In this document: in pieces, positions 1 to 32,625 of the stretch
How the letters are laid out: each line of letters begins with the position of its first letter
Position numbering within the stretch: position 1 is the stretch's first letter
Virus record (IMG/VR): IMGVR_UViG_3300042261_002390
Coordinates: 1-64,000 of that record
Direction: 5' to 3' (one strand)
DNA from: a virus
DNA length: 64,000 bases
Made by a program: the position numbers and the translations under genes
Notes under the pieces: generated by a model
What the model saw: only the letters and a program-made list of their open reading frames with translations
The model's database searches: none
What the model was told of the DNA's origin: nothing

Positions 1-402
1 TTATATCCTAATTTTATCATTGCATTTTTTACTAATGTCTGTGCTTGTGAGATACTTATTGGTTTTTTTTTGTGGATTAAAACCAGTGGTACTTAGCCAT
101 TCTTGAAATCCATCTTGGAACTCTTGTGGTGTATCGATACGAGATGCAGCATATTTGACTGATGCTGATTTATCTGTTGCTTTTTGTAAATATGCCACAT
201 CAGCAGGTACTTTGTATTGCGTCGTTGGTAATTGTTCGTCAATTGGTACGCAGTTAGGTACTTCTTTACCTTCCTTATCTTTCATACCATATTGTTTATA
301 GCCATCCCAACATGAATCTTCTTCATTTAACACCGTTTTATATCCGGGATTTATTTTTCCCATCATTTCAAATAGTTTCTGTTTATTTTGAACATTTTTC
401 AT
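1..402 (-). CDS. Small putative internal virion protein with LFEMMG leader
   Basis: The 133-residue protein has no recognised enzymatic domain. Its N-terminus (QKLFEMMGKI then TVLNEED) matches leaders seen at 3986, 5177, 7760 and 32212, and ends in an L-x-E site of the type cut by T4 prohead protease. Next comes a Cys-containing segment (SCWDGYKQYGMK, then VPNCVPID) that I recall from other phage hypothetical proteins. I chose the ATG at 402 rather than the longer reading from 474 because the reverse-strand octamer GTATTTAT (418-425) lies inside the longer version, 15 bases before this ATG. The stop codon is the first three bases of the window, so the gene is complete. Role as a packaged head protein is inference. 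Confidence 0.7.
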   Translation of the reverse strand: MKNVQNKQKLFEMMGKINPGYKTVLNEEDSCWDGYKQYGMKDKEGKEVPNCVPIDEQLPTTQYKVPADVAYLQKATDKSASVKYAASRIDTPQEFQDGFQEWLSTTGFNPQKKTNKYLTSTDISKKCNDKIRI

Positions 403-417
403 GTCACCGATTTTAAT

Positions 418-425
418 ATAAATAC
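418..425 (-). promoter_or_regulatory. GTATTTAT putative late promoter
   Basis: ATAAATAC on the plus strand, 15 bases upstream of the reverse-strand start at 402. It fixes that start because the longer ORF would contain the promoter. Confidence 0.6.
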
Positions 426-592
426 CACAATAACAAAAAAATGCACCAAGAAATATGGTGCATTTTAATCTCATCAGTCAGTCTCAAATTTTACGTAACC
501 ACTGTCTGGCAATAAAATTTTGAAAAATCATTCCTGATTTTCTCTCAGACATAACTTAATTCATTCATACATTAAGCAATGATTTTCATTTA

Positions 593-600
593 ATAAATAC
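593..600 (-). promoter_or_regulatory. Orphan reverse-strand GTATTTAT octamer
   Basis: An exact copy of the octamer with no convincing gene directly downstream; only ORFs of about 20 codons follow before 474. It may be a second promoter for the gene at 1-402, or chance. Confidence 0.3.
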
Positions 601-642
601 TGTATTTCATGAAATTTATTATGGATTAATATAAAACATTTA

Positions 643-650
643 GTATTTAT
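643..650 (+). promoter_or_regulatory. GTATTTAT putative late promoter
   Basis: The octamer ends 16 bases before the ATG at 667, the usual spacing in this window. Confidence 0.6.
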
Positions 651-666
651 TATAAATTTTAAATCG

Positions 667-1266
667 ATGAGCACAAAAAATTTAATAAAAATCATTAATG
701 AAACTATTGAAGAATTTGATTTTCTCAATAACGAATCTTCGCTTATGGAACAGGAAACCATTGAATTGCTGAAAAATGAAGATTTACAGAAACGATTTAT
801 TTGTGATTCATTATTGGAGAGAAATGATAAAATAAAAATCCTTAATAATGAAACAGCTAGTTTAGACGGTAATTGGGAAGATGACCCTGAAAACGCAAAC
901 ATGCTTTCAATTCAATATGACCTAAAGTTACAATACACATATGATTCGAGTAAAGAACCTTTAGTATTTAATTTATTTTTTTATGGTGATAATGTTAGTA
1001 TTTCTACAGCAGATAGATTTGAAAAGGGCGATTATTACTCACCATCAGAAGGAGAATCTTGGTTTAGAAATATTGAATGGGATGATATTAATGTTGAATT
1101 GGCAACCGAAGAAGGTGATGAAATTAGATTTATAGCATTTGAAAAAGCACCGTATAATATTAAAAGAATATTCATACGTGAATTTGTCGAAAATTTTATT
1201 AGTTCATATACGAATATGGATGTTCGTGATAATATTGATAAATCACAAGTAACACAATTCTGCTGA
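667..1266 (+). CDS. Hypothetical protein
   Basis: A 199-residue acidic protein that I do not recognise. The first 60 residues are predicted mostly helical and charged; residues 70-165 look beta-rich (LKLQYTYDSS, LVFNLFFYGDNVSIS). It starts 16 bases after a GTATTTAT octamer and ends one base before the next gene (1268), so the two are probably co-transcribed and translationally coupled. No signal peptide or membrane segment is visible. Real-gene status rests on length, promoter and coupling. Confidence 0.75.
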   Translation: MSTKNLIKIINETIEEFDFLNNESSLMEQETIELLKNEDLQKRFICDSLLERNDKIKILNNETASLDGNWEDDPENANMLSIQYDLKLQYTYDSSKEPLVFNLFFYGDNVSISTADRFEKGDYYSPSEGESWFRNIEWDDINVELATEEGDEIRFIAFEKAPYNIKRIFIREFVENFISSYTNMDVRDNIDKSQVTQFC

Positions 1267-1267
1267 G

Positions 1268-1681
1268 ATGAACGAAGAAAAAAAGAAAATACTCGATAAG
1301 ATTAATTTGCTCATCGATAAAAGAAAGGATGAGTTACTTCAAAGATTTCCACATATACATGAAATCGAAGATGGTATCATTATTCGATTTTTTACTAATT
1401 GGAATAATTGCAGTAATAATGAAGAAGTTAGATATAAAAGGTTTGTTAATGAAAGTGATGATGACGATATTACTGTTTTACATTTTATTCCAAAAGGAAC
1501 AAAACTTGAGTTAATGAAGCACGAGTATATCAACTCAATAATATGTATCAACGGTAGAATAAAAATTAAAATAGATAGTGAAGCATTTATACTTGAATCC
1601 AATAAAAAACTATATCTACCTAACAATGAGTTTGAAGCATACGCTTTTGAAGATACTTATGTAATTACACAAAATAAGTAA
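1268..1681 (+). CDS. Cupin-like small protein
   Basis: The 137-residue protein has a helical N-terminal third (KKKILDKINLLIDKRKDELL) and a beta-rich C-terminal half with a single-domain cupin pattern: a pair of strands around HEYINSIICINGRIKI, then a hydrophobic strand and a second half-motif ending AYAFEDTYVI. The usual cupin metal ligands are incomplete: one His in HEY is visible and no HxH. A metal-free binding role is therefore as likely as catalysis. It follows 667-1266 by one base in an apparent two-gene operon and converges on the reverse-strand gene at 1682. Assignment is from fold-like pattern only. Confidence 0.6.
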   Translation: MNEEKKKILDKINLLIDKRKDELLQRFPHIHEIEDGIIIRFFTNWNNCSNNEEVRYKRFVNESDDDDITVLHFIPKGTKLELMKHEYINSIICINGRIKIKIDSEAFILESNKKLYLPNNEFEAYAFEDTYVITQNK

Positions 1682-1894
1682 TTACCATTTCTTTTTAGGT
1701 GCTGCACAAGATGAATACCTGCTTCTTACTTTAGCTGGCATATAGCATCCACATAAATTACATGTTTTATTTGATTTTTTAAAGTCATCACATTCAACAC
1801 AAATCTCTATTCTTTTTTTTGCCAATTCTTCAGCTTCAGGATTTTCAAAAATTAAATTTTTCCAGCCATCATAAATTTCCAATAAAATGCTCAT
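1682..1894 (-). CDS. Small zinc-ribbon-like protein
   Basis: A 70-residue protein whose C-terminal half holds C-x2-C (CVEC), C-x2-C (CNLCGC) and a last Cys before a basic PKKKW tail, consistent with one structural zinc site. Similar short Cys-rich proteins with a CGC-M-x-K pattern occur in phages and bacteria, usually with no assigned function. It lies two bases after the stop of the tail protein at 1897-3900 on the same strand, so it is probably transcribed from the promoter at 3919. A role in folding or assembling that protein is possible but unproven. Confidence 0.7.
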   Translation of the reverse strand: MSILLEIYDGWKNLIFENPEAEELAKKRIEICVECDDFKKSNKTCNLCGCYMPAKVRSRYSSCAAPKKKW

Positions 1895-1896
1895 AA

Positions 1897-3950: not shown

Positions 3951-3958
3951 GTATTTAT
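3951..3958 (+). promoter_or_regulatory. GTATTTAT putative late promoter
   Basis: Octamer 27 bases upstream of the ATG at 3986, forming a divergent pair with 3919-3926. Confidence 0.6.
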
Positions 3959-3985: not shown

Positions 3986-5149
3986 ATGAATAAAAACATT
4001 AAACTAAGATTATTCGAAATGATGAATAGAGTTGGTGGAATGCCAATTGTTAATGAAGCTGATTCATTACCACCCGGAATTACTAATAATGACATCATTT
4101 CATTGGATGATTTTGTTGATTCAGGCAATATTCAAGAAGATACGACTGGTGTTCAAATGCAACCAGCAGATATAAAAAAAATTGTCGATAAAAGGAAATC
4201 TGATGCTCCACGTGATAGAGAAGACCCATATATTCATTCTAAGACAATTGAAATTATTGATAAAAATGGTAATGAAATCGACCAAGAACAGCTAAAAAAA
4301 ATAATAACGCAAAGACCACCAACACTTTTAAGTAGTAATGAAAAAGTGGGTAAAACAGGTATCTTAAAGATATCATTGCCTGCATATAAAGGATTATATT
4401 ACGATGAAAAAGATGGACAATTTAAAGTAGTTAATACGTGTCCAAACGCTGGTGAATGTAAACTATATTGCTATCAACAAAAGGGTAGGTCTGTTATGTA
4501 TGATAATGCTGCAATTAGTAAAACCAGAATATTAAACTTTTTACTAAACCATTGGGATGCATTTAAATATAAAATGGTTGATGAAATTGAAACAGCCAAA
4601 ATGAGCAATGATAAAAAGGGATTAAAAACTATCGTAAGATGGCATGATTCCGGGGATTTTATTTCTGATAAGTATCTTGATTTAGCTATGGATATTGCAA
4701 GGGAAACACCAGATGTTTTACATTATGCATATACTAAAATGGTTTCATCAGCAAAACGAGCAAACGTACCTAGTAATTTTGTGTTTAGATATTCATTAGA
4801 TACTGGTTCACCCGAAACCGGATTAGTTAACAAATATGAGGATAAACATACTGAAGTAGTGCCTAAGCAATTATTTAAAGACTTAATGTATGCTAAAAAA
4901 GAACCGATTAAAGGTGGAAAAGAATTTAAAAATATTTGGCATTATAATTCAAAACACGATTTAATCGAATTTAAAAACAGATTATCAAAACAATATGGAA
5001 TCGATGTAAATACAATTATAACATTTGATGAAATGCAAAAAATTCCTGAGCAAGGTGATAATAAGTGGAACGTAATTGTTACACCATCAGACCCGGACAC
5101 TGCAGCACATAGAAAAGATGTATTAGGTGTTTATTTATTGATTCATTAA
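3986..5149 (+). CDS. GP88-family protein with putative capsid-targeting leader
   Basis: The 387-residue protein has two parts. Residues 1-24 (LRLFEMMNRV ... PIVNE) are the shared leader seen in four other proteins here, with a V-x-E end. Residues about 120-330 resemble the phage GP88 family (named after a mycobacteriophage gene product, function unknown): a Cys cluster TCPNAGECKLYCY (C152, C158, C162), then RWHDSGDFISDKYL near 216-229. The Cys cluster could bind a metal or iron-sulfur centre; this is inference. The region between the leader and the GP88 core is acidic and probably flexible. If the leader acts like T4 internal-protein signals, the GP88 domain would be packed in the head and injected with DNA. 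Confidence 0.7.
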   Translation: MNKNIKLRLFEMMNRVGGMPIVNEADSLPPGITNNDIISLDDFVDSGNIQEDTTGVQMQPADIKKIVDKRKSDAPRDREDPYIHSKTIEIIDKNGNEIDQEQLKKIITQRPPTLLSSNEKVGKTGILKISLPAYKGLYYDEKDGQFKVVNTCPNAGECKLYCYQQKGRSVMYDNAAISKTRILNFLLNHWDAFKYKMVDEIETAKMSNDKKGLKTIVRWHDSGDFISDKYLDLAMDIARETPDVLHYAYTKMVSSAKRANVPSNFVFRYSLDTGSPETGLVNKYEDKHTEVVPKQLFKDLMYAKKEPIKGGKEFKNIWHYNSKHDLIEFKNRLSKQYGIDVNTIITFDEMQKIPEQGDNKWNVIVTPSDPDTAAHRKDVLGVYLLIH

Positions 5150-5152: not shown

Positions 5153-5160
5153 GTATTTAT
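5153..5160 (+). promoter_or_regulatory. GTATTTAT putative late promoter
   Basis: Octamer 16 bases before the ATG at 5177, just after the stop of the GP88-like gene. Confidence 0.6.
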
Positions 5161-5176: not shown

Positions 5177-5632
5177 ATGAAAAAGAACGACAAACAAAGA
5201 CTTTTCGAAGTCATGGGTAGGTTAGATAAAACATTTAAGCCAAAACTCAATGAAGACATAATGAACGCCGAACCAGAAGAACACCAAAACGAAGGCGCAA
5301 CCAATAAAGCTAAGTTAGAAGAATTGGTTAAAATGGCAAAGAAAGCATATAAACATTTGCCAGATGGTGAATTACCTTCATGGGTTCAAGATAATATTAC
5401 AATTGCAAAAGAACGCTTAGGTAGTGTTTGCGGTTGGTTGCATAGCGAAGAAGAAGCCGAAGAAACTGACATGGAAGGTGAACATCGTGATATGGATGAC
5501 GAAGAAGAACACGATGAAGAAGCCGAAGAAACTGAAACTGATGAAGAAGAATCTGACGATGAAGAATCAGAAGAAGAGTCTGAAGAACCAGAAAAAGAAT
5601 CAAAACCAAAAATTCCAGTAAAGAACTGGTAA
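5177..5632 (+). CDS. Acidic putative internal head protein
   Basis: A 151-residue protein. Residues 1-27 hold the leader (KQRLFEVMGRLD then FKPKLNED), almost identical to that of the gene at 32212. Residues 35-85 form a small predicted helical domain (KLEELVKMAKKAYKHLPDG, WVQDNITIAKERL), and residues 90-140 are an extreme Glu/Asp tract followed by a short basic tail. Acidic internal proteins are known in T4-like prohead cores. The L-x-E at the leader's end would be the prohead protease cut site. It has its own octamer at 5153 and is followed 13 bases later by a homing endonuclease gene. Confidence 0.7.
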   Translation: MKKNDKQRLFEVMGRLDKTFKPKLNEDIMNAEPEEHQNEGATNKAKLEELVKMAKKAYKHLPDGELPSWVQDNITIAKERLGSVCGWLHSEEEAEETDMEGEHRDMDDEEEHDEEAEETETDEEESDDEESEEESEEPEKESKPKIPVKNW

Positions 5633-5645: not shown

Positions 5646-6422
5646 ATGTACAACGAAGCTGATGATAAAAAAACACATAAATCTGGCATATACGTAATTA
5701 AAAATATAATTAACAATAAAATATATGTTGGTCAAACTATTAATATTATTGAAAATAGAATAAAAAGGCATCAATACGAATTGAAAAATAATAAACATGC
5801 TAATATTTATCTACAAAGAGAATTTAATAAGTTTGGTATACATTGTTTTGAATTTAATATATTATATTTCGGCATAATAACTATTGATGAATTAAATGAA
5901 ATTGAAATTAATCTAATTCAAAAATATAAATCGAATGATGAGAATTTTGGTTATAACATCTTACTTGGCGGTAAAAATCAAAAATTACCAGAAACTGTAA
6001 AAAATAAAATAAGCAAATCGTTGTTAAATAATAAATTTACATCAAAAAAAATTGTTCAATATGATATACAAACCGGAAATATTCTTAAAACATGGGATTC
6101 GTTTAATGAAATTAAACGTCAGCTTGGGTTCAATATAGGAAATATTGCCCAATGTTGTAAATTAAATCCGCAATATCCACATTCAAATAAATTTGGTTGG
6201 AGATATTTAGATGATTACGAAAAATCAAATAAAAATGATTTAATGTATGATTTAAATTCAAAAAAACATAAAAAAATTATTGCAATAAACTGTGATGAAA
6301 TAATAGAATTTAAATCAATAAAAGAGGCTGAAGTTTATTTTAATGTTCACAGAAAATTCATACATAGAGTATTATCAGGAAAAAGAAAAAAATATCATAA
6401 TTATGAATTTAAATATGTATAA
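5646..6422 (+). CDS. Free-standing GIY-YIG homing endonuclease
   Basis: The 258-residue protein starts with a GIY-YIG nuclease domain: SGIYVIKN near residues 13-20, KIYVGQT near 26-32, an Arg-bearing helix (ENRIKRHQ), and the conserved Glu region in NEIEINLIQKY. The C-terminal half has two NUMOD-type DNA-binding modules (IVQYDIQTGNILKTW with the following helix-turn-helix, and a second from KIIAINCDE). It has no GTATTTAT octamer and sits tightly between two head-associated genes (13 and 5 bases), as an inserted mobile gene would. Very AT-rich codon use fits a selfish element. Its target site is not visible. Confidence 0.88.
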   Translation: MYNEADDKKTHKSGIYVIKNIINNKIYVGQTINIIENRIKRHQYELKNNKHANIYLQREFNKFGIHCFEFNILYFGIITIDELNEIEINLIQKYKSNDENFGYNILLGGKNQKLPETVKNKISKSLLNNKFTSKKIVQYDIQTGNILKTWDSFNEIKRQLGFNIGNIAQCCKLNPQYPHSNKFGWRYLDDYEKSNKNDLMYDLNSKKHKKIIAINCDEIIEFKSIKEAEVYFNVHRKFIHRVLSGKRKKYHNYEFKYV

Positions 6423-7710: not shown

Positions 7711-7718
7711 GTATTTAT
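7711..7718 (+). promoter_or_regulatory. GTATTTAT putative late promoter
   Basis: Octamer 41 bases upstream of the ATG at 7760. Confidence 0.55.
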
Positions 7719-7759: not shown

Positions 7760-10171
7760 ATGAAAAGTCATACATCAAAAGAGGCATTATTCGAAAGAAT
7801 GAGAACGTTAGCCGAAGTAAACAAAACATCGCTTAAAGAATCGCTAAATCGTACATTAGGTACGTTGATTGATTATAAAAGAGCAGCAGATGGTGTTGTT
7901 TATGGTATTGTTAAAGAAAATCACCTATATTACATAAAGAAAGGTGGTATTAAATCAGACCCAGACGTAACTGATTTTGCATATATTGGTGGTTTAGCAA
8001 ACATCACTAATTTCCAATATAAATCATTATCTGAAGCAGATAAAAATCGTAATATGCTTTTACATACAATCAATGAAGCATATTCATTGAATATGGGTAA
8101 GAAAAAAATTAATGAAGATGCTGCTGAAGACGAAATCGACAACGCTGAAGCAAGATTAGGTGATTTAGATGCTGCAACTGCTGCAGAAACTGAACCTGAT
8201 GATGTTCAGATGGCTGCTGGATTAGAAGCAGAACCAATGGGTGATGAACCTGCACCAGAAGGCGGTGAAGAAGAATTGCCAGCACCAGAAGGTGAACCTG
8301 CACCAGAAGGCGGTGAAGAATTGCCTACTGACGGCGGTGAAGAAGAATTGCCAGTTGATGGTGAACCTGCACCAGATGGTGAAGAAGAATTACCTACTGA
8401 TGGTGAAGAAGAATTACCTGTTGATGGTGAACCATCACCCGAAGGAGGCGAAGATGAAAATATTCGTGAATTAGAAAAATCTATTGGTAAATTAACCAAT
8501 GTTATTAGAAAAACGGATTTAGAACCAACACAATCAAAATCCTATCTTAAGTCATTGATTCAGTCGTTTAAAGATAAATTACCTGAACTTGAAATTGAAG
8601 ATAGAAAGGAAATTGCAAACATGATTACTAAAGTAGTACCACCTGAAGATGTTGAGGATTTGAGTAGTGTCGTTCCTCAAGACGATGAAGCAGGTATGGA
8701 AGAAGCAGCATGTAATGAATGTGGTAGTTTTGCAAAATATGCAGAATCAAGAGGATATGGTAGCGCAGATGCATTAATGGAATGTGGTGAAGAAGAAGTT
8801 GGTAATCTTGTAAGCGGATATGCTAATGCAAACGCTGAAGGTATGAACGACGGTGACCATGAAAATGTTGCACTTGTAATCAAATTAGTCAATCCTGAAA
8901 TTTTAAATAGTTTAAAGGGTGATTATGGACACGAAGAATATGCAAATAAACTCACACCATATGTTGATTCAATGAACGAAGAAACCGAAGAAGAAGGTTA
9001 CACAAAACTCAACGAATTGTTCGGTAGTTTAGGACGTGGTTTAAAGGGTGCTTTTGGTAAAGTAGGTGGTGATGTTGCAAAAGGTGTTAGCGACAAATAT
9101 ACAGCAGCAAAAGAAAAAGTTCAGCAATATGGTACTGGTGTAAAACAAGCTTACCATCAAGCTAACGTTGGTGCTGAAATCGATAAGCTTGAAACGCAAG
9201 CAAACGAATTAAGACAGCAAGTACTCGCATTAGCAGATAGAGCAAAAAAAGCAGGTCAAACTGACGTTAACGTCAATAGTTTACTTAGAAGTATTGGAAA
9301 TCAAATAGTTACTGGTAACATAAATATTGGTGGTACTAAGGCAGGTTCAACAATTCAAAGAGAAAATATTGACCCGGCAAATATTGAAACGCAATCACTT
9401 TATGAAGAAGATGAAGAAATTGACAATGTTGAAGTTGACGATACCGAAGCTACTGAAGAAAAACCAGAAATTAGTTTTGCACCTGCAGCACAAACATTAG
9501 GTGCTGGTGTAAATAAGCCCGATGGTGCTCCAACAACAATTAGTGTAACTTCAAAAGAAGGTGCTAAAGTTGATGTTAGTTTGAGTGAAGTTGTTAAAAA
9601 GTTAAGAGAAATTGTTGCTGAAGGTAAAGTTAAAGAAGGTAATGCGTTTACTGCTAAATTAGCTAATACTCCAAAAGGTAAGGATTTTAAACTTGGTGAC
9701 AAGAAAATGAAAGATACTTCGGATTACGATAAAGAAAACGTTGAAGAAGCAGCAAAACCATCTGCCGGATTATCGAAAGAAAAGAAATCAGCTATTGTAA
9801 AAAAAGCTAAAGCTGGTGAAGATATTGGTAAGAAGGGAAAGGGTTTTAAAGAAGTCGAAAAAGCAGCAAAAAAAGGTGGTGCTGAAGACCCTAAAGCAGT
9901 AGCTGCAGCAGCTATGTGGAAAAATGTAAAGCGTGAAGGTGTTGAGGCAAAACCAATGAAGAAGAAAATGGAAGAATCTTTCGTAGCAAACAATGGTTTC
10001 ACTGTTGAAAATATCCGAGAATATACTAGACATAGATTAGGTATTTTAAGCGGTAAGGAAAAAGAATCTTTAACAGAAGCATCAACAAATCAAAAATTCG
10101 AAAAAGCATTGAGTATGTTAAACGAAGCAATTGAAAAACAATTCAACGTAGCTAAATCGAAATTTAAATAA
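7760..10171 (+). CDS. Large putative internal head protein with acidic repeats
   Basis: An 803-residue protein of low-complexity, helix-rich character. The N-terminus (KEALFERMRTL ... TSLKES) is a diverged form of the leader, with L-x-E as the possible protease site. Residues about 155-235 are Pro/Glu/Gly repeats (APEGGEEELP units), 430-500 are Ala/Lys/Gln helical, 620-720 are Lys/Ala/Gly-rich, and the last 80 residues are helical again. Several further L/I-x-E sites (TINEA, KKINED, SMLNEA) would be cut by a T4-type prohead protease. Position just upstream of terminase and portal fits a prohead core or ejected protein. No enzymatic domain is visible. Confidence 0.7.
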   Translation: MKSHTSKEALFERMRTLAEVNKTSLKESLNRTLGTLIDYKRAADGVVYGIVKENHLYYIKKGGIKSDPDVTDFAYIGGLANITNFQYKSLSEADKNRNMLLHTINEAYSLNMGKKKINEDAAEDEIDNAEARLGDLDAATAAETEPDDVQMAAGLEAEPMGDEPAPEGGEEELPAPEGEPAPEGGEELPTDGGEEELPVDGEPAPDGEEELPTDGEEELPVDGEPSPEGGEDENIRELEKSIGKLTNVIRKTDLEPTQSKSYLKSLIQSFKDKLPELEIEDRKEIANMITKVVPPEDVEDLSSVVPQDDEAGMEEAACNECGSFAKYAESRGYGSADALMECGEEEVGNLVSGYANANAEGMNDGDHENVALVIKLVNPEILNSLKGDYGHEEYANKLTPYVDSMNEETEEEGYTKLNELFGSLGRGLKGAFGKVGGDVAKGVSDKYTAAKEKVQQYGTGVKQAYHQANVGAEIDKLETQANELRQQVLALADRAKKAGQTDVNVNSLLRSIGNQIVTGNINIGGTKAGSTIQRENIDPANIETQSLYEEDEEIDNVEVDDTEATEEKPEISFAPAAQTLGAGVNKPDGAPTTISVTSKEGAKVDVSLSEVVKKLREIVAEGKVKEGNAFTAKLANTPKGKDFKLGDKKMKDTSDYDKENVEEAAKPSAGLSKEKKSAIVKKAKAGEDIGKKGKGFKEVEKAAKKGGAEDPKAVAAAAMWKNVKREGVEAKPMKKKMEESFVANNGFTVENIREYTRHRLGILSGKEKESLTEASTNQKFEKALSMLNEAIEKQFNVAKSKFK
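8221..8455 (+). repeat. Imperfect in-frame coding repeats (EGGEEELP units)
   Basis: Repeated codons for Pro-Glu/Asp-Gly-Gly-Glu-Glu-Glu-Leu-Pro, with units of roughly 12-20 codons. The DNA repeats closely (GGTGAACCTGCACCAGA recurs), so unit number may vary between isolates through slippage or recombination. Confidence 0.8.
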
Positions 10172-22024: not shown

Positions 22025-22726
22025 ATGAGTAGAATATTGCAAGCAGGTGAAAAAGGATTTGGAATTTTAATTGAAAGTGATGCTGGTTATATCAGTACTG
22101 ATTTAAATCCTGCGTTTATAAATGAAGGTTTTGAATTAAAGCCAAATGAACCTGTTCTAATTAATTGTATTTTACAGAAATGGGGTGTTAAAAATAAAAA
22201 TGGTCGAATATATCCAAAATCAGTATTAGTTCCCCAAGTTGAATCATATCAACAATTAGTATCTAATAATAGTGCTGTTTCTGAAGCAGACCATCCAGAT
22301 TCATCAATAATTTCATTACAAAATATCTCACACATGATTACTAAAATGTGGTGGGGTAAAGGCGACCATGAAAATGTATTATATGGTCAATTGAAAATCA
22401 TTGTTAGCCCGGGTTATATTAAATATGGAGTTGTTTCGGTTGTAGGTGATAAAATAATATTATACATACAAAATAAAATAAGATTAGGCATCTCATCACG
22501 TGGGGTTGGTAGTCTTAAAGAAATAAACGGCGAAAATTTAGTACAGTCAGATTTTGAGTTAATTGGTTTTGACTTAGTTGCAACTCCAAGTACTCCGGGT
22601 GCATATTTATTTCCTGAACAATCAAATTCAGTAACATTCGGTGAAAATTATGTACAAAAGAATGGAATTTATTTGAAGGAAGATGATGAGAAAATCATAA
22701 ATACACTCAATAAATTCTTATTATGA
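22025..22726 (+). CDS. Prohead core protease (T4 gp21-like)
   Basis: This 233-residue serine protease of the gp21/herpesvirus-assemblin type matures the prohead by cutting scaffold, capsid and internal proteins after L/I-x-E. The catalytic His is in SEADHPD (H90) and the nucleophile in LGISSRGVG (S157 or S158), the two signature motifs of the family. The third active-site residue cannot be placed from sequence alone. QKWGVKNKNGRIYPKS near residue 51 is the usual substrate-groove motif. It is encoded directly before scaffold and capsid genes, as in T4. It is the probable processing enzyme for the LNE leaders described elsewhere in this window. Confidence 0.92.
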   Translation: MSRILQAGEKGFGILIESDAGYISTDLNPAFINEGFELKPNEPVLINCILQKWGVKNKNGRIYPKSVLVPQVESYQQLVSNNSAVSEADHPDSSIISLQNISHMITKMWWGKGDHENVLYGQLKIIVSPGYIKYGVVSVVGDKIILYIQNKIRLGISSRGVGSLKEINGENLVQSDFELIGFDLVATPSTPGAYLFPEQSNSVTFGENYVQKNGIYLKEDDEKIINTLNKFLL

Positions 22727-22810: not shown

Positions 22811-24433
22811 ATGGCAGACGAAGAAAAAACATCAATTATTAAAGAAGCATTAGCTGATTTAAATGCTATTAGAGAAGCTGCGGAACTTAATGCCATGAAA
22901 AGATTGGCTCAAAGCAATCCGAATAACTTCGATAAATTGTTAAAAGAAGAATTAAATAAAAATAAAAAAGCAAAAGAATCTTATAAAAAAATAGATGATG
23001 CTGAAGAGTCTGAGCAATCAGATAAAACAAAATTAAAAAACGAATCTGATATGAAGAATCAAGCAAATGAGACCGTAAAGGTTGTTGACACAGTTGGAAA
23101 AGGCGAACCTTTTGAAAAAAAGGTTAAAGGTGGTAAACCTGTAGAAGAAGATGTACACATTAAAAAAGGTGGTGGTGTAACCATTACTGACACTATCGGA
23201 AAAAGCGACCCATTTTCTGAAAAGAAAAAAGGTCAAAAAATCGAAGAAGAACGTGAAAAAGATTTTATGGGCGATGTTGAAAGCGATACTCCAAACCAAG
23301 CTAAAGGCGAAACAGGTAAAGGTGTTGCATTTAAGGAAAAAATTAAACCACCTACTGTAGGTAAACCTATTTCAAATTTGAAAGAAGAATTCAACATTTC
23401 AGAACTTGACATGAGTACTGTAGGTACTGCATTGGATAATGCCGACGAAGAAGATGAAATCATCACTATTGATGAAATCGAAGAAGAAATTCAAGGCATG
23501 AGTGGATTACCCCGTCCTGAATTACAGAAACGTGGCGAACCACTTGGACAAACAGGTGATGCTTATCAACAATTAGTTAGTATGAGAAATCAAATTGACG
23601 AAATGTTAAAAGGTATGAATCCTGAAGAAGAAAGTGCTGGCATGGAAGAAGAAGGTATGGAAGAAGGCGATGATATTACTACTGCTGATATTGAATCAGT
23701 ATTAGGTTCAGCACCGGAAGAAGAAGAAGAGGAAGAAGAATCTTACGCTCCTGAAGAAGAAGAGGAAGAAGAATCTTATTTACCTGAACAGGAAGAAGAA
23801 GAAACTTATAAACCTGAAATCGAAGAAGCTTTAGGCGTTTCACATGCAACAAATAAAATTACAACAGCTCATAATCCACGTCCTGCGTATGCTAGTAGTC
23901 CAGCAGCAGTTGAAAGAAGAAGACCATCGACACAAGGCATGTATGAAAGCAAGAAATTTAATAGTTTAATTGAAGAAAACAAAAAGTTAACTAAAAAATT
24001 GAACGAAACAAAAAAATTGAAAGATTCTGCTACGTCATTGGTTGAAAGCTACAAAACAGCACTCGAAAAATATCGCAATCAATTGAAAGAAATGGCAGTT
24101 TTCAACACCAATTTAGCACACGTTAATAATTTATTGGTAAATGAAAGCTTGGCATTAACTCAAGATGATAAAATTAAAATTATCAACGGATTTAAAAAAG
24201 TTGATAGTATTACTGAATCACAGAATGTTTATAAAACTTTCTTAACAGAAATGAATGAAAGTGGTAAAAAAACAATTTCTGAAGGTATTAAAGGTAAAGT
24301 ATCAGCCTCGATACAGCCATCTTCAAAACAAAAACTTGATGAAGTAGTCGAAAAAACAGCATATTCAAATAATGAGCATGTTTCACGCATGAAAAATCTT
24401 ATTGAATATGTAGAAAAAAGAGGTAAAAAATAA
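22811..24433 (+). CDS. Prohead scaffold core protein (T4 gp22-like)
   Basis: This 540-residue protein is about twice T4 gp22. Residues 1-60 are helical and charged. Residues 80-190 hold two similar Lys-rich units (VDTVGKGEPFEKK, ITDTIGKSDPFSEKK). Residues 270-340 are Glu tracts broken by SYAPEEEEE, SYLPEQEEE and TYKPEIEE units. Residues 375-540 are a coiled-coil scaffold domain (ENKKLTKKLNETKKLKD onwards), the part most like gp22. The position between protease and capsid genes supports the assignment. The protein should be degraded by the prohead protease during maturation. Confidence 0.85.
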   Translation: MADEEKTSIIKEALADLNAIREAAELNAMKRLAQSNPNNFDKLLKEELNKNKKAKESYKKIDDAEESEQSDKTKLKNESDMKNQANETVKVVDTVGKGEPFEKKVKGGKPVEEDVHIKKGGGVTITDTIGKSDPFSEKKKGQKIEEEREKDFMGDVESDTPNQAKGETGKGVAFKEKIKPPTVGKPISNLKEEFNISELDMSTVGTALDNADEEDEIITIDEIEEEIQGMSGLPRPELQKRGEPLGQTGDAYQQLVSMRNQIDEMLKGMNPEEESAGMEEEGMEEGDDITTADIESVLGSAPEEEEEEEESYAPEEEEEEESYLPEQEEEETYKPEIEEALGVSHATNKITTAHNPRPAYASSPAAVERRRPSTQGMYESKKFNSLIEENKKLTKKLNETKKLKDSATSLVESYKTALEKYRNQLKEMAVFNTNLAHVNNLLVNESLALTQDDKIKIINGFKKVDSITESQNVYKTFLTEMNESGKKTISEGIKGKVSASIQPSSKQKLDEVVEKTAYSNNEHVSRMKNLIEYVEKRGKK

Positions 24434-24461: not shown

Positions 24462-26144
24462 ATGGGATTTTTAACAGAAAGTGCTGAAGTTGGTAATATC
24501 GGATTAAAACAACTTCGTGAGCAAAGAGAAATTACAACTAACCGTTGGGAAAAAATCGGTTTATTGGAAGGTTTGGAAGGTAATGTAAAAGAAAATTGTG
24601 CTCAATTATTTGAAAATCAATTGTCTTATATGATTAACGAATCTTCAGATTCGACCAATTCAGGTCAATTTGAAACCGTAGCGTTCCCGGTTATCCGAAG
24701 AGTATTTGCAAAATTACTTGCTAACGACATCGTGTCGGTTCAAGCATTGAATTTACCTATTGGTAAATTGTATTACATTAACCCAAAAGCTAGTGTTCGT
24801 GTACAAGATGGTACTCATACAAACGTAGCTGGTCTTGAGCATACTTCACCTGATGGTGCTTATGGTAATGCTGCAACAAAACCATCAACTTCAAGAACAC
24901 AGTTCGAAACTCGTTCATTATACGATGCATTCTATGCAAGTGAATATAATGAAGAAGGTACTTCATTGTTCGACCGTTCAAAAGGTGACATGACTGTTCA
25001 CACTGGTGCAACTTCTGCATCTACTTTCGTTATCGGTACTGATAAATTTATCACTGTACAAATTGGTGGTTTCTTGGTAGCAGATTCAGGTAAATTAGTA
25101 GGTCCTGCTGGTGTTCAGATGGATACTGAATCATTCCTTGCTTCTTTGAAAATTACTGCTGATGCTGACTTAGTAGCTCCTGCTGGATTTACTGACCAAA
25201 ACATTCCTGCTGGTTCTTCAATTCCTTTCAACGTAAAGGTACAGAAATACGGTCAGGCAATCGTTGACAAAGCTGGTATTATTACTTTAGTTGTTGACGT
25301 TCAGTATGCCGGAACTAATGGATATCAACCATTGAGTGCTACAACTACTCCTACATTCAACTACGAATATAGAAGTTATTCAGACCTTGAAGAAGATTCA
25401 AGAATGGCTGAAGTTACTTTCCAACTTGACCAAGTTACTGTTTCCGTAGAAACTCGTAAAATGCGTGCTATGTGGACACCTGAATTAGCTCAGGACGTTA
25501 GTGCATTCCATAACATTGATGCTGAAGCTGAATTAACTGCTTTATTGTCAGAACAAATGGCTGCTGAAATCGACCGTGAAATTCTTCGTGACCTTCGTAG
25601 AGGTGCTGCTTGGACTGCTCGTTGGGACTACAACGGATTGCGTCGTCAATCAAATACTTACTATGGAACACAAAAAGACTGGAATCAGACATTAATCACT
25701 AAGATTAACCAGATTTCTGCTCAAATCCATAAAGCTACTCTTCGTGGTGGTGCATCTTGGGTTGTTGTTTCTCCTGAAGTAAGTGCTGTATTCGATGACC
25801 TTGAATACTTCCACGTATCAAACGCTGCTCCTGAACAGGACAAATATAACATGGGTATCGAAAAAATCGGTACATTGAGTGGACGTTACATCGTTTACCG
25901 TGACCCATATTCACCTGCTAATACTATCCTTATTGGACACAAAGGTAATAGCATCTTAGAGACCGGTTACATATACGCTCCATACGTACCAATGCAGTTA
26001 ACTCCTGTAATGTACAACCCATTCGATTTCACTCCTATTCGTGGTATCATGACTCGTTATGCTAAGAAAATGGTATTGAACCGTTACTACGGACGTATCT
26101 ATTGCGATGGTCTTCAAACTTTTGGTATTGGTGATTTGCAATAA
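24462..26144 (+). CDS. Major capsid protein (T4 gp23-like)
   Basis: The 560-residue HK97-fold capsid subunit has typical gp23 landmarks: FPVIRRVFAKLLANDIVSVQ (near 75-95), the ETRKMRAMWTPELAQD block in the middle, and the C-terminal FTPIRGIMTRYAKKMV then NRYYGRI. The N-terminal arm ends in SYMINESS, where E60 is a good match for the T4 maturation cut after E65. Codon use shifts strongly toward C-ending codons (TTC, AAC, TAC, GAC), unlike the neighbouring genes, consistent with very high expression. It has no octamer of its own and lies 28 bases behind the scaffold gene. A terminator follows at 26164. Confidence 0.95.
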   Translation: MGFLTESAEVGNIGLKQLREQREITTNRWEKIGLLEGLEGNVKENCAQLFENQLSYMINESSDSTNSGQFETVAFPVIRRVFAKLLANDIVSVQALNLPIGKLYYINPKASVRVQDGTHTNVAGLEHTSPDGAYGNAATKPSTSRTQFETRSLYDAFYASEYNEEGTSLFDRSKGDMTVHTGATSASTFVIGTDKFITVQIGGFLVADSGKLVGPAGVQMDTESFLASLKITADADLVAPAGFTDQNIPAGSSIPFNVKVQKYGQAIVDKAGIITLVVDVQYAGTNGYQPLSATTTPTFNYEYRSYSDLEEDSRMAEVTFQLDQVTVSVETRKMRAMWTPELAQDVSAFHNIDAEAELTALLSEQMAAEIDREILRDLRRGAAWTARWDYNGLRRQSNTYYGTQKDWNQTLITKINQISAQIHKATLRGGASWVVVSPEVSAVFDDLEYFHVSNAAPEQDKYNMGIEKIGTLSGRYIVYRDPYSPANTILIGHKGNSILETGYIYAPYVPMQLTPVMYNPFDFTPIRGIMTRYAKKMVLNRYYGRIYCDGLQTFGIGDLQ

Positions 26145-26230: not shown

Positions 26231-27688
26231 ATGGTTTCATATCAATATAAAATTAGAAAAGAAAAAGAATTGTCTGAAGTGCTTGATTTTGATATTAATC
26301 ATGTAAATCTACATAATACGACAATAAGAGAAATTAATAAAAAAACAGCAACAAAAATAATATTAGAGTATGAATATTTACATTCAATGCCTTTTGCTTG
26401 TAAATATTTTTTTGGGATATATTTTAATATTAATAATTGTGAATATTTGGGAGGTGTTTTAGTTTTTGGCAATGAATATTCTGAAAATACTGGTGCTTGG
26501 CAAAAATATGGATACGAAGATAAGATTCTGCTATTAAGTCGTGGGGTTTGTTTATGGTGGACACCAAAAAATACAGCATCATATTTTATTAGCAGGGTTT
26601 GTGATATACTAAAAAAAACCACCAACTATAAAATAATTACAGCTACTGTAGACCCTGCTGCTGGTGAGATTGGGACAATTTATCAATCATTAAATTGGTA
26701 TTATGTTGGCTTAATGAGTGGCAATTATCATGGTAATAAAATGGCAACTCGATTCGGAGTTATAATCAATGGTAAATTACGATTGTCACGGTGGATACGT
26801 AATAAAATAGGTAGTATGCGCCGTGAAGAAATTTTAAAGCATTATCCGGATGCTATATTTGTACCACAATACAGAAAACAAAGATATTTTTATTTCATCG
26901 GTAATAAAACAGAAAATAGAAAACTTATTAATAGTATTAAGCATCTATTATTACCATATCCCAAAAGAAATAATCAGATTTCAGGAATAATTTATTTAAT
27001 AAAAAATGAAATTAACAATAAAATATATGTAGGGCAAACAATTCGTTCATTACGTGATAGAATTCGTGAATATGAAAAAGGATTTGGCAATGTATATTTA
27101 AACAATGCATTTAAAAAATATGGTTGGAGTAATTTTAAATTTGAAGTAATTGATACTGCAGAGAATTTGGAAGAATTAAATGAAAAGGAAATCTCTTACA
27201 TTAAAAAATATAATTCAAACAATAAAGAATTTGGGTATAATATTGAATCCGGTGGAAAAAATGCAATTCCTGATACTGAGACGTTAGAGAAAATGTCTAA
27301 ATCACATTTAGGCATTGTTCAATCTGAAGAATGGATTAACAGAAGAATAGCTAAAGCAGGTACTGATGAAGCAAAAAAATACGGTAAAACAAAAACAGAG
27401 GATGAAAAAACACAATTAAGTATTAATTCTCCAAAATATTGGAAAGGTAAATCTCGTGATACTAAGACTAAAGAAAAAATCAGTAAAACAAAACTTGAGA
27501 ATGGATTGTCTGAAAAACAAAAAGAAGTATTATTAAAAAAAGTATATAAAGTAGATATTATCAACAATACTACAATAGAATATGAGTCAACATTATCTGC
27601 ATCAATAGCAGAAAACGTAAATCAATCTACAATATCAAGACGATGTTCGAAAAATAAAATAATAAAAAACATATTGTGGAAATATTAA
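26231..27688 (+). CDS. Mom-like acyltransferase domain fused to GIY-YIG endonuclease
   Basis: The 485-residue protein has two apparently independent parts. Residues about 40-180 resemble phage Mu Mom-type DNA-modification proteins (GNAT-like): EYLHSMP, FGIYFN, LGGVLVFGN, LLSRGVCLWW, NTASYFISR, VDPAAGEIGTIYQ, NWYYVGL. Residues 250-345 are a GIY-YIG nuclease: SGIIYLI (251-257), KIYVGQT (264-270), an Arg-rich helix, and the catalytic Glu region LNEKEISYIKKY. A NUMOD/helix-turn-helix module ends the protein (VYKVDIINN, ASIAENVNQSTISRRC). It follows the capsid gene, a common homing-endonuclease location. The Mom assignment rests on motif pattern and needs a profile search. Confidence 0.75.
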   Translation: MVSYQYKIRKEKELSEVLDFDINHVNLHNTTIREINKKTATKIILEYEYLHSMPFACKYFFGIYFNINNCEYLGGVLVFGNEYSENTGAWQKYGYEDKILLLSRGVCLWWTPKNTASYFISRVCDILKKTTNYKIITATVDPAAGEIGTIYQSLNWYYVGLMSGNYHGNKMATRFGVIINGKLRLSRWIRNKIGSMRREEILKHYPDAIFVPQYRKQRYFYFIGNKTENRKLINSIKHLLLPYPKRNNQISGIIYLIKNEINNKIYVGQTIRSLRDRIREYEKGFGNVYLNNAFKKYGWSNFKFEVIDTAENLEELNEKEISYIKKYNSNNKEFGYNIESGGKNAIPDTETLEKMSKSHLGIVQSEEWINRRIAKAGTDEAKKYGKTKTEDEKTQLSINSPKYWKGKSRDTKTKEKISKTKLENGLSEKQKEVLLKKVYKVDIINNTTIEYESTLSASIAENVNQSTISRRCSKNKIIKNILWKY

Positions 27689-29997: not shown

Positions 29998-30029
29998 CAA
30001 ATATAGTATATTATGGGATTAATTACAAC
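29998..30029 (-). promoter_or_regulatory. Host-type promoter for the helicase operon
   Basis: On the reverse strand TATATTTG (29998-30005) matches TAnnTTTG, with GTTG 20 bases upstream (30026-30029). It overlaps the start of the opposing neck gene. Confidence 0.5.
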
Positions 30030-31131
30030 GGTTGATAAAAATAAATTATACCTACATGTTAAACACGAACTTGGTTTTCCTCTCAGACCATTTGAAATTA
30101 AAGATGAGATGATGGATTCATATCTCGAAATGGTTGTTGAAGATTATTCATCAATTGTAAATAATTGGTTGATTGAACAGCAATGGATTAGTTTAGAAGG
30201 TATGAGTAAAGAAAATGGCGATTTTCTTTCAGCATTTTCGAATAAATCGAATCACTATATGGAATCATTTACCTACGCATATTCAAAACAAGTAGGTTTA
30301 GGTACTAATGCACCAGCAGCACCGGGATGGGAATTAAAACGTGATTTCATTGTTACTGAAGCTAATACACAACATTATATGATACCTGCAGGTAGGGAAG
30401 TTAATGAAGTATTATGGGAAACTCCACCTGAAATAGACCAAGGTTTGGTTGACCCATTTGCATTAAATGCTTGGTCGCCGGGTATGGTTGGATGGTCATA
30501 TCTTGGTCGTCCTGCGATGTATGTGCAACCAACATTTTCAACACTTTTAGCTGCACAAGATAGAAGGATGAAACAAAGAGTTTTACAATCAACATTAACT
30601 TATCGCATCACAGGTTTGGCAAATGGAGAAAAAATATTACATTTGTACCCGATTCCCGGAGACCGACATGAAATTTCAGGTGCTTGGGGTAAACATTATG
30701 CCGGAAGAAAGGTATGGTATTGGTATTATGAAACCAATCCACAAACAAGGGATAAGTGTTTAGAGGAAAATGATGATACTGTAAAATTACCATCAGACCC
30801 TCCAACCAAAGTGCTGCAATGGGGTAATTTAAATGATGTTGCTCATCAACAAATTCGTAATTTACTTATTGCTAAAGTAAAAATGGTTATCGGTGGAATT
30901 CGTGGCTTTTATAGCGGTGAATTAGGTGTTGCCGAAAAGCAATTGACAATGGATTATCGTCATTTGCTTGATGAAGGAACTAAATTGAAAGATGATACAG
31001 AAAAGTTAATTCTTGAGCAATTAGGTAGAATTAGTCAAGCAACCTTAACCGAAACACGTGCTAAAATAGCTGAAAATGTTAACAAGGAACGTGGCTATCA
31101 ACCGCCAATGTTTCCTATTATCGCTATTTAA
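30013..31131 (+). CDS. Neck protein (T4 gp13-like)
   Basis: A 372-residue protein. The N-terminal helices (VKHELGFPLRPFEIKDEMMDSYLEM) and the C-terminal block (LLIAKVKMVIGGIRGFYSG, then a long helical KQLTMDYRHLLDEGTKLKDDTEKL) parallel T4 gp13, which binds under the portal to close the filled head and accept the tail. The middle is Trp/Pro-rich beta sequence. Two genes later lies a gp14-like protein, and gp15 follows at 35920, giving the T4 neck set 13-14-15 in order. Similarity is judged by eye and is moderate. Confidence 0.75.
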   Translation: MGLITTVDKNKLYLHVKHELGFPLRPFEIKDEMMDSYLEMVVEDYSSIVNNWLIEQQWISLEGMSKENGDFLSAFSNKSNHYMESFTYAYSKQVGLGTNAPAAPGWELKRDFIVTEANTQHYMIPAGREVNEVLWETPPEIDQGLVDPFALNAWSPGMVGWSYLGRPAMYVQPTFSTLLAAQDRRMKQRVLQSTLTYRITGLANGEKILHLYPIPGDRHEISGAWGKHYAGRKVWYWYYETNPQTRDKCLEENDDTVKLPSDPPTKVLQWGNLNDVAHQQIRNLLIAKVKMVIGGIRGFYSGELGVAEKQLTMDYRHLLDEGTKLKDDTEKLILEQLGRISQATLTETRAKIAENVNKERGYQPPMFPIIAI

Positions 31132-31132
31132 A

Positions 31133-31636
31133 ATGGAAAATTTGTTGAAATTAATGTCAAAAAAACCAAAACTAATATTATTAGTTGGTATTTCAGGAAG
31201 TGGTAAATCTACTTGGGTTAGATTACATGCCGACCCAAACGCTATTGTAGTATCCTACGATATGCTTAGATTTGAAATTAATGGTAATGTTGATGACCAT
31301 CCTAATTCATCTAAGATTCACTTAATTGCATTAAGCAGAATTGTTAAAGGATTATGCGATGGTAAGGACGTTATACTTGATGCAACTAACGTATATTCTA
31401 AAGGACGTAGAGAACTATTAGCTGAAATCCGTGAAATGGCTGATGTTGATTTCGTAGCATGTGCAAAAATTTTTCCAGCTAACCCTGAGTTAAGTAAATT
31501 AAGAATCGAAAACGACATTAAAGCAGGATTAAACCGTTCTAATGTTCCTGTTGAAGCAATTAACAGGCAATATCAAATGTTTTGTGAAAACACACATAAA
31601 TTAGAGCGTGACGGATATAAAATTATTGTAGTATGA
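31133..31636 (+). CDS. Polynucleotide-kinase-like P-loop ATPase
   Basis: The 167-residue P-loop kinase of the T4 PseT 5'-kinase type has Walker A GISGSGKST (19-27), the substrate-binding SYDMLR motif, VILDATN (Walker B-like, typical of this group) and a lid region with DIKAGLNRSN. The 3' phosphatase domain of T4 PseT is absent, so only 5'-OH phosphorylation of DNA or RNA is predicted. The ATG at 31133 is one base past the previous stop; the longer reading from 31076 would overlap the neck gene by 56 bases. It is oddly placed between neck genes 13 and 14. Confidence 0.85.
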   Translation: MENLLKLMSKKPKLILLVGISGSGKSTWVRLHADPNAIVVSYDMLRFEINGNVDDHPNSSKIHLIALSRIVKGLCDGKDVILDATNVYSKGRRELLAEIREMADVDFVACAKIFPANPELSKLRIENDIKAGLNRSNVPVEAINRQYQMFCENTHKLERDGYKIIVV

Positions 31637-32184
31637 AAAAGAAAAAACAAATAATTGACTTAGAACAAGATAGATATGGATTATTTATGTCAGACAATTC
31701 GTTTGATTTAGATGTGATGTATGGTAGAAACTTCCTGCAAACGGATAATGCGCAGGAAGTTATTATACATAAAATTAATGTGATTGAGACTAAAACCCAT
31801 GCATTATATGGTCAAGCAAAAACTAAGGATAAAAAATTTATGCCACCTGTGCGTATAAATGTGATGGTAGGTGTTACCGAAGCCAAACAAAACTATTATG
31901 GTGATAATCCGGGGGGAATTACTCGTGATGATACAGGTACAATTACATTTGGTGTTTATTTAAAAGAACTTGAAGAAAAGCAATTGGAAATTGACCGTGG
32001 TGATATTGTCGAATATAATATGAGTGGTGAGAAAAGTAGATTCTATGAAGTAGAAAATGCTAACAACGTAACTGACGAAACACTTAAAACTATTGGTGGA
32101 TTTAAACCATACTGGAAAAAAATTACTGGTACTCCTGTGAAAGAAGACGTTGTGCCATTTTTGCATGAAACAAAAGGAAACTAA
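31633..32184 (+). CDS. Probable neck protein (T4 gp14-like)
   Basis: A 183-residue protein whose start overlaps the kinase stop by four bases (ATGA). DLDVMYGRNFLQ and the later GDIVEYNMSGEKSRFYEVENA parallel the T4 gp14 DLIFGED and GDLIYFPMDNSLFEI segments, and the size is a little shorter than gp14 (256). gp14 forms the second neck ring with gp13. The assignment rests on these short matches plus position after gp13, so it is moderate. Confidence 0.6.
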   Translation: MKKKKQIIDLEQDRYGLFMSDNSFDLDVMYGRNFLQTDNAQEVIIHKINVIETKTHALYGQAKTKDKKFMPPVRINVMVGVTEAKQNYYGDNPGGITRDDTGTITFGVYLKELEEKQLEIDRGDIVEYNMSGEKSRFYEVENANNVTDETLKTIGGFKPYWKKITGTPVKEDVVPFLHETKGN

Positions 32185-32187
32185 TTA

Positions 32188-32195
32188 GTATTTAT
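32188..32195 (+). promoter_or_regulatory. GTATTTAT putative late promoter
   Basis: Octamer 16 bases upstream of ATG 32212. Confidence 0.6.
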
Positions 32196-32211
32196 ATTAA
32201 AACTTTATAAA

Positions 32212-32625
32212 ATGGCAAATAATAATAAAAAACAACGATTGTTTGAGGTAATGGGTAAAGTAGATAGCTCATTTAAACCAAAATTAAATGAAGAAATGAC
32301 ACAGCCTGTTGATGAAATGTCTAAATGGGGTGTAACCCGTGCGAATCCAAAATATTCTCACTTTGCAGTTTTAAAAGGCGTTGACCCAGCAGTTGATGGT
32401 AAAATTGTTAATGGTTGGGAATATGGTGGTTATGACCCGGCAGAATTACGTCAATTTAAGAAAGATTATTTCTTCCAAGATATAAAAGATAATCAAATCA
32501 ATCCAAAATTAGTAAATATTGTAACCGCAAAACATTTACAAAAACAAGGAATTGACCCTTACGATTTTAAAAATTGGTATAAAAATGATAGGGACGGCTT
32601 TGTAGACCAAATATTCACAATGTAA
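32212..32625 (+). CDS. Putative internal head protein with LFEVMG leader
   Basis: The 137-residue protein begins with the shared leader (KQRLFEVMGKVD then FKPKLNEE), nearly the same as at 5177 although the rest is unrelated. After it come a strand-rich centre (VDGKIVNGWEYGGYD) and a helical C-terminus (LQKQGIDPYDFKNWYK). No domain is recognised. It has its own octamer and its own terminator, so it is a stand-alone late gene far from the other leader-bearing genes. Confidence 0.7.
   Translation: MANNNKKQRLFEVMGKVDSSFKPKLNEEMTQPVDEMSKWGVTRANPKYSHFAVLKGVDPAVDGKIVNGWEYGGYDPAELRQFKKDYFFQDIKDNQINPKLVNIVTAKHLQKQGIDPYDFKNWYKNDRDGFVDQIFTM

What the first reader, a model, noticed from the sequence alone, without database searches (positions are those of the whole stretch)
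1..32625. Shared LFExMG...LNE leader: a probable capsid-targeting and cleavage signal on unrelated proteins
Five otherwise unrelated proteins begin with variants of KQRLFEVMG followed after 8-11 residues by L/V-x-E: 1-402 (TVLNE), 3986 (PIVNE), 5177 (PKLNE), 7760 (TSLKE), 32212 (PKLNE). T4 internal proteins carry N-terminal capsid-targeting peptides removed by gp21 after L/I-x-E (established). A gp21-like protease is encoded at 22025 and the capsid protein has MINE at residue 60. Inference: this leader sends cargo proteins into the prohead, so it identifies the set of injected proteins of this phage.
Basis: partly seen in the sequence, partly recalled or inferred. Interest (0 to 1): 0.88.

Follow-up and report, generated by a model that had tools for sequence, protein, structure and literature searches.

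The report
Shared capsid-entry tag in uncultured phages
Unrelated proteins of a family of large uncultured phages, probably infecting Bacteroidota, begin with the same ~27-residue tag, which very probably carries them into the phage head and is then cut off by the phage's own protease, so the tag gives a readable list of proteins likely packaged and in part injected into the host.

Summary
The leader K-x-R-L-F-E-x-M...[L/I/V]-N-E starts exactly 7 proteins of the 246 kb genome, five in the window and two at 71.4-73.5 kb. Four of the five in the window are statistically solid; 7760 is weak by sequence. In relatives I collected 170 non-identical leader proteins, all N-terminal, with mature parts in at least 35 unrelated clusters. 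Conservation stops sharply after the Glu. Leaders keep their protein sequence while synonymous sites are saturated, so this is not a DNA element. The same [LIVM]-N/T/K-E site occurs in the capsid protein propeptide and at the N-terminus of the gp21-type protease. In this proteome, LFE followed by [LIVM]NE is found only in leaders, in two similar N-termini and in the capsid propeptide (9 observed, 0.35 expected). All five window leader genes carry the putative late-promoter motif GTATTTAT. Mature domains in relatives include an ADP-ribosyltransferase and a zincin protease. Best reading: a capsid-targeting sequence like that of T4 internal proteins, with unrelated sequence and a wider cargo. Limits: no virion data; 20 of 170 leaders lack the cut site; some bearers look like prohead core rather than injected cargo. 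New variant of a known kind.

The parts
322..402 (-). leader of gene 1-402: MKNVQNKQKLFEMMGKINPGYKTVLNE | EDSCWDGYK...
   Evidence: leave-one-out E=1e-7
3986..4057 (+). leader of the Gp88-domain protein: MNKNIKLRLFEMMNRVGGMPIVNE | ADSL
   Evidence: (PF17338 E=1e-31); leave-one-out E=0.003
5177..5254 (+). leader of small acidic protein: MKKNDKQRLFEVMGRLDKTFKPKLNE | DIMN
   Evidence: leave-one-out E=1e-11
7760..7840 (+). divergent leader of 803-aa acidic protein: MKSHTSKEALFERMRTLAEVNKTSLKE | SLNR
   Evidence: leave-one-out not significant (E=2.7); relatives keep [IL]KE|S at this place
32212..32292 (+). leader of 137-aa protein: MANNNKKQRLFEVMGKVDSSFKPKLNE | EMTQ
   Evidence: leave-one-out E=2e-12
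22025..22726 (+). gp21-type prohead protease (Peptidase_S77); own N-terminal candidate site AFINE|GF at residue 34
22811..24433 (+). acidic gp22-position scaffold candidate, just upstream of the capsid gene
   Evidence: position and composition only; no Pfam or PHROG match
24462..26144 (+). major capsid protein (Gp23 family)
24606..24641 (+). capsid propeptide end LFENQLSYMINE | S: the same LFE...[LIVM]NE arrangement as the leader
   Evidence: [LIV][NK]E in 46 of 46 distinct relatives matched
418..425 (-). GTATTTAT putative late-promoter motif before gene 1-402
3951..3958 (+). GTATTTAT motif before 3986
5153..5160 (+). GTATTTAT motif before 5177
7711..7718 (+). GTATTTAT motif before 7760
32188..32195 (+). 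GTATTTAT motif before 32212

Best explanation
The leader is a capsid-targeting propeptide that works like the T4 CTS. Proteins made late in infection are recruited into the prohead core by the basic, amphipathic N-terminal segment K-x-R-L-F-E-x-M-x-[RK]-[VLI]. The phage's S77 (gp21-type) protease then cuts after [LIV]-N-E, releasing the mature protein inside the head; small enzymatic proteins among them are injected with the DNA. Shown here: the leader, its sharp end, protein-level selection, the protease, the matching site in capsid protein and protease, and the shared upstream motif. Inferred: binding to the core, actual cleavage, and injection.
For: 170 leader proteins, all N-terminal, with mature parts in at least 35 BLAST clusters. 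In an alignment not forced on the motif, information is 3.4-4.2 bits at K, R, LFE and M, low in the linker, 3.0/2.5/3.3 at L-N-E and about 1 afterwards; [LIVM]NE in 111/170 leaders vs 4.2% of control windows, [LIVM]xE in 150/170 vs 31%. Leaders of unrelated proteins: pS 0.70, pN 0.23. Substrate-site agreement: capsid sites INE 42, LNE 2, LKE 1, VNE 1; protease N-terminal sites LNE 15, INE 8, ITE 6, VNE/IKE/LTE 1 each; leaders N >> T = K at P2. LFE-x(4-20)-[LIVM]NE occurs 9 times in the proteome (0.35 expected): six leaders, the capsid propeptide, two other N-termini. S77 protease in 16 of 17 related long records. GTATTTAT upstream of 5/5 window leader genes vs 46/284 others, Fisher p=1.4e-4; it also precedes terminase, portal, scaffold, sheath and tube genes. 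Cargo domains in relatives include ART-PolyVal, zincin and PNK. T4: the targeting part of the CTS is separable from the processing part, and gp21 cuts after L/I-x-E (PMC9026906). The same self-comparison recovers the T4 IPII/IPIII leader as a positive control.
Against: No proteomic or structural data from any virion of this lineage. 20/170 leaders lack L-x-E, so cleavage is not universal; LFE itself fits L-x-E, so the cut point is ambiguous. The leader shows no sequence match to the T4 CTS. Two of the seven bearers look like core protein. The late promoter is inferred from sequence only, and in relatives leader genes are only modestly enriched for it (75/165 vs 31% of other genes in head loci).
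Confidence: 0.83

Rival explanations
1. The leader marks components of the prohead core (scaffold or core proteins that are cut up and lost), not cargo that stays in the head and is injected.
For: 7760 (pI 4.6, 20 [LIVM]xE) and 71869 (pI 4.3, 11 [LIVM]xE) are long and acidic like core proteins.
Against: Many bearers are small proteins with enzymatic or globular domains: ART-PolyVal, zincin HExxH...ENEANA, PNK, cupin, Gp88. Mature 1-402, 5177 and 32212 have only one [LIVM]xE each.
Confidence: 0.2
2. The leader only docks proteins on the scaffold or portal. Cleavage after LNE is incidental or absent, and the real cut, if any, is after LFE.
For: LFE fits L-x-E and is more conserved than LNE; 20/170 leaders keep LFExM without a later L-x-E. 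Targeting and processing are separable in the T4 CTS.
Against: The second site is strongly conserved in sequence and marks the end of conservation; P2 shows the same N > T/K preference as capsid and protease sites.
Confidence: 0.15
3. A shared DNA or RNA element (promoter, translation or recombination site) that happens to lie in the coding start.
For: Leader genes share an upstream promoter-like motif and two neighbouring genes have near-duplicate leaders.
Against: Synonymous positions are saturated while residues are kept (pS 0.70 vs pN 0.23); several codons are used for each of L, R and K; the upstream motif is also found on genes without the leader.
Confidence: 0.02
4. A tag for another destination or partner in the infected cell (replication compartment, membrane, host protein), unrelated to the head.
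For: The leader is basic and amphipathic (moment 0.50; 8.6% of proteome 11-mers are higher), which many tags are.
Against: The leader ends in the head-protease site and the capsid protein carries the same LFE...NE arrangement; five bearers are under the motif that precedes head and tail genes.
Confidence: 0.06

Closest known systems
T4 capsid-targeting sequence (CTS) of internal proteins IPI, IPII, IPIII
   Same: N-terminal peptide shared by otherwise unrelated small proteins; ends at an L/I-x-E site for the gp21-type protease; same Gp23/S77 head module; variable cargo.
   Different: No sequence match; 24-28 residues instead of 10; two conserved blocks (LFExM and LNE) with a variable linker; up to 12 bearers in one genome and at least 35 cargo clusters including enzymes.
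T4 Alt (packaged ADP-ribosyltransferase with N-terminal propeptide)
   Same: One leader bearer in a relative has an ART-PolyVal domain, as expected of an Alt-like injected enzyme (L013:17980-18465).
   Different: Different ART family, and that copy has no L-x-E after the leader.
SPN3US / phiKZ head-protein propeptides
   Same: Giant phages that remove N-terminal propeptides of head and ejected proteins after x-x-E (PMC10052503).
   Different: SPN3US protease cuts after A-x-E and most propeptides are 111-254 residues; here P3 is L/I/V and the leader is short and shared between proteins.
Flavobacterium phage vB_FspM_immuto leaders (not described before, as far as I found)
   Same: In this cultured phage I found two shared N-terminal leaders ending in [LI]xE: MENFDLKKFLVENKLTxNSKxLxE (4 proteins) and MKKQILSEQFxRMQxLAGIITES (2).
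   Different: Sequences unrelated to LFExM; the leader HMM has no significant hit there.
Polyvalent proteins of phages and plasmids (Iyer et al. 2017, PMC5512222)
   Same: Cargo domain types overlap: ART-PolyVal, zincin metallopeptidase.
   Different: Here domains sit on separate small proteins, each with its own head-targeting leader, rather than in one giant polypeptide.

Membership tests
T4-type capsid-targeting sequence / internal proteins | Short N-terminal peptide shared by proteins with unrelated mature parts | tested here: met
   7 in G000; 170 in the lineage in at least 35 clusters, all N-terminal
T4-type capsid-targeting sequence / internal proteins | Leader ends in an L/I-x-E site for the prohead protease | tested here: met
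   All 7 in G000 have [LIV]xE; 150/170 overall have [LIVM]xE vs 31% in controls; 20 exceptions
T4-type capsid-targeting sequence / internal proteins | Same phage encodes an S77 (gp21) protease and a Gp23 capsid protein | tested here: met
   S77 in 16/17 related long records
T4-type capsid-targeting sequence / internal proteins | Sequence homology to the T4 CTS (MKTYQEFIAE) | tested here: not met
   Leader HMM has no significant hit in T4, so this is 'works like', not 'is a'
T4-type capsid-targeting sequence / internal proteins | Late expression | tested here: inconclusive
   GTATTTAT motif on 5/5 window leader genes and on head and tail genes; no transcript data
T4-type capsid-targeting sequence / internal proteins | Protein found cleaved inside virions | not testable with these tools
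   Needs virion mass spectrometry
T4-type capsid-targeting sequence / internal proteins | Injected into the host | not testable with these tools
   Only domain types point that way
SPN3US/phiKZ-type propeptides | A-x-E cleavage motif (SPN3US) and mostly long propeptides | tested here: not met
   The conserved column before N-E in the unforced alignment is L 123, I 22, V 8, M 4, A 1; capsid and protease sites are also L/I/V; leader 24-28 residues

The most novel reading that the evidence does not exclude
The leader is a portable copy of the end of the capsid protein's own propeptide (LFENQ...INE|S). Cargo enters the prohead by using the same scaffold dock and protease presentation as the capsid protein, and each Gp23-type lineage may have evolved its own leader family this way, giving a general sequence rule for reading out packaged and injected proteins of uncultured phages.
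Probability: 0.25. Interest if true: 0.85.

Novelty: new variant of a known kind. Interest (0 to 1): 0.62.

Why it matters
Which proteins a phage carries in its head and delivers at the start of infection is known for very few phages, and in T4 these proteins are anti-defence factors (PMC12373910). A leader that can be read from sequence gives candidate packaged proteins for a widespread uncultured lineage, proposes a packaging route for ADP-ribosyltransferases, zincins, kinases and many proteins of unknown function, and suggests an address tag for loading proteins into a different type of phage head.

Tried and rejected
Density of [LIV]NE across each protein as a test of core proteins: only 173828-176305 stood out. 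Exact T4 late promoter TATAAATA: 32 matches, 20.7 expected, and none upstream of leader genes on the coding strand; the real shared motif is GTATTTAT. DNA-level element: rejected by pS/pN. tblastn of the leader against 50,697 phage records: no match. bS21, described in other Bacteroidetes huge phages with the same head genes (PMC9723584), is absent from 10 records here. AlphaFold of 32212: low confidence (pLDDT 62), leader region below 50, no fold match. AlphaFold of the zincin: pLDDT 79, weak IrrE/PprI, CapP and Wss1-like matches. No defence-system match of note among bearers.
Full report
WHAT IS THERE. The window is the first 64 kb of a 246,149-base virus record, called G000 here. I read the rest of the genome in stretches and searched every six-frame ORF with a profile of the leader. 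There are exactly seven hits, all at the N-terminus of long ORFs, and the next hit has E = 1.3. The two new ones are neighbouring genes at 71410-71862 and 71869-73458. With each leader left out of its own profile, and both of the pair at 71 kb left out together, six of seven are still found (E from 0.003 to 2e-12). The exception is 7760 (E = 2.7). Its relatives keep a similar N-terminus ending in [IL]KE|S, so it may be a diverged member or an analogue.

HEAD MODULE. The protease at 22025 is Peptidase_S77 (E = 5e-20) and the capsid protein at 24462 is Gp23 (E = 4e-73); terminase at 10863, portal at 13002, tail sheath at 41076 and tail tube at 44419 are also identified. The nearest cultured capsid protein is that of Flavobacterium phage immuto at 34% identity. 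Close relatives (69-91% in the capsid) are common among IMG/VR contigs up to 365 kb, and three contigs of Bacteroidota metagenome bins carry the same capsid gene, so a Bacteroidota host is likely but not shown.

THE LEADER ACROSS THE LINEAGE. The leader was found in all 17 related long records searched, up to 12 copies in one. Together with two DNA-pattern scans this gave 170 non-identical leader proteins, all N-terminal, whose mature parts fall into at least 35 clusters by BLAST (the largest cluster is partly joined by acidic low-complexity sequence, so the number is approximate). An alignment made without reference to the motif shows two conserved blocks: K-x-R-L-F-E-x-M (3.4-4.2 bits) and, after a linker of variable length, L-N-E (3.0, 2.5 and 3.3 bits). 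After the Glu the information falls to about 1 bit. [LIVM]NE occurs shortly after the first block in 111 of 170 leaders against 4.2% of control windows of the same proteins; [LIVM]xE in 150 of 170 against 31%. Between leaders of unrelated proteins synonymous sites are saturated (pS 0.70) while non-synonymous change is low (pN 0.23): selection acts on the peptide.

LINK TO THE HEAD PROTEASE. The site after the leader has the same letters as two independent head substrates of the same phages. At the capsid propeptide, 46 of 46 distinct relatives matched have INE, LNE, LKE or VNE; at the N-terminus of the protease, 32 of 32 have LNE, INE, ITE, VNE, IKE or LTE. Leaders show the same order at P2: N far ahead of T and K. 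These are predicted sites; the capsid count was made with a pattern that already expects a hydrophobic-x-E arrangement, and the protease count reads a fixed position, so the informative part is P2 for the capsid and the whole triplet for the protease. In addition, the pattern LFE-x(4-20)-[LIVM]NE occurs only nine times in the G000 proteome (0.35 expected): in six leaders, in the capsid propeptide itself (LFENQLSYMINE|S, conserved in relatives) and at the N-termini of 70694 and 127573. T4 gp21 cuts after L/I-x-E, and in the T4 CTS targeting and processing are carried by different residues (PMC9026906).

EXPRESSION. Upstream of the leader genes lies GTATTTAT, typically 20-35 bases before the start codon. 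It occurs 77 times in the genome (36 expected from a first-order model), within 90 bases upstream of 51 of 289 genes on the coding strand and of only 9 on the other strand. It precedes terminase, portal, scaffold, sheath and tube genes, and all five window leader genes (5/5 vs 46/284, p = 1.4e-4); the two leader genes at 71 kb sit in a gene string whose gene at 70493 begins with it. I read it as the late promoter of this phage, which is an inference. In relatives the enrichment over other genes near the capsid locus is modest (45% vs 31%).

CARGO. Mature domains include Gp88 (window 3986), and in relatives an ART-PolyVal ADP-ribosyltransferase, a PNK-like kinase, a cupin, DUF5661, DUF4313 and DUF3293. 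The family of 71410 has an HExxH...ENEANA signature of a zincin metallopeptidase, with weak structural matches to IrrE/PprI, CapP and Wss1. ART and zincin domains are recognised components of proteins thought to be packaged and injected by phages (PMC5512222). By contrast 7760 and 71869 are long, acidic and rich in L-x-E, more like prohead core protein. So the leader probably means 'goes into the prohead', not in every case 'is injected'.

LEADERS WITHOUT A CUT SITE. Twenty of 170 leaders keep LFExM but have no [LIVM]xE after it, often reading ...NPDF; they include PNK-like kinases and the ART. Either they are packaged uncut, as T4 CTS variants with Asp at the cut site are, or LFE itself is the cut site, or they are a different use of the same docking helix. 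This is unexplained.

COMPARISON. The same self-comparison of N-termini recovers the IPII/IPIII leader in T4 and finds two undescribed shared leaders ending in [LI]xE in Flavobacterium phage immuto. Thus the kind of system is known from T4, where internal-protein genes have long been recognised by their leader and IPs are anti-restriction proteins (PMC12373910). New here are the leader sequence, its two-block anatomy, its spread over a large uncultured lineage and the range of cargo. No match to the leader exists in 50,697 phage records. I found no mention of it in the open-access literature searched; subscription journals and preprints were not covered.

VERDICT. Observation confirmed; interpretation partly supported: targeting and cleavage likely, injection plausible for the small enzymatic bearers, exclusive 'set of injected proteins' not supported. 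New variant of a known kind.

Noticed in passing
L030:6281-8236, L036:5882-7678, L048:6462-8309, L050:1545-3506, L063:6369-8309, L028:6281-8236: In six relatives the prohead protease is interrupted in frame by an intein-like insert of about 350-400 residues at its conserved ADHPD motif (starting CVNASES..TKDGW, ending HWTGN|S); L036 has it at a slightly different position. G000's own protease is uninterrupted.
   Followed up: partly
window, 20-35 bases upstream of many genes, e.g. 10840, 12971, 22778, 29981: GTATTTAT is a strand-specific motif upstream of 51 genes, probably the late promoter; it is close to the reverse complement of the T4 late promoter TATAAATA.
   Followed up: partly
NC_055915 (Flavobacterium phage immuto): L244:11698-11994, L244:10697-11695, L245:1803-2315, L246:5807-6352; L244:4741-5202 and L245:25061-25453: Two shared N-terminal leaders ending in [LI]xE on otherwise different proteins of a cultured phage: MENFDLKKFLVENKLT.. 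and MKKQILSEQF.RMQ.LAGIITES. A practical system for testing the idea.
   Followed up: partly
G000 70694-71410, 127573-128523, 191634-192149 (outside the window): Further N-termini ending in INE (ILFEEHL...YKINE|S, ILFENIKIFRHIINE|A, VKNFKQFINE|Q), possible variant leaders; the last resembles the T4 type.
   Followed up: no
G000 173828-176305 (outside the window): 825-aa protein with 7 [LIV]NE motifs (0.9 expected, P=4e-5), possible prohead core protein.
   Followed up: no
window 5646-6422 and 26231-27688: GIY-YIG homing-endonuclease-like genes inside the head gene region, one next to the leader gene 5177 and one just after the capsid gene.
   Followed up: no
window 31076-31636 vs L013:17447-17992: PNK-like kinase at the same place behind the capsid region; relatives carry the LFExM leader on it, G000's copy does not. 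Leaders seem to be gained or lost by corresponding genes.
   Followed up: partly
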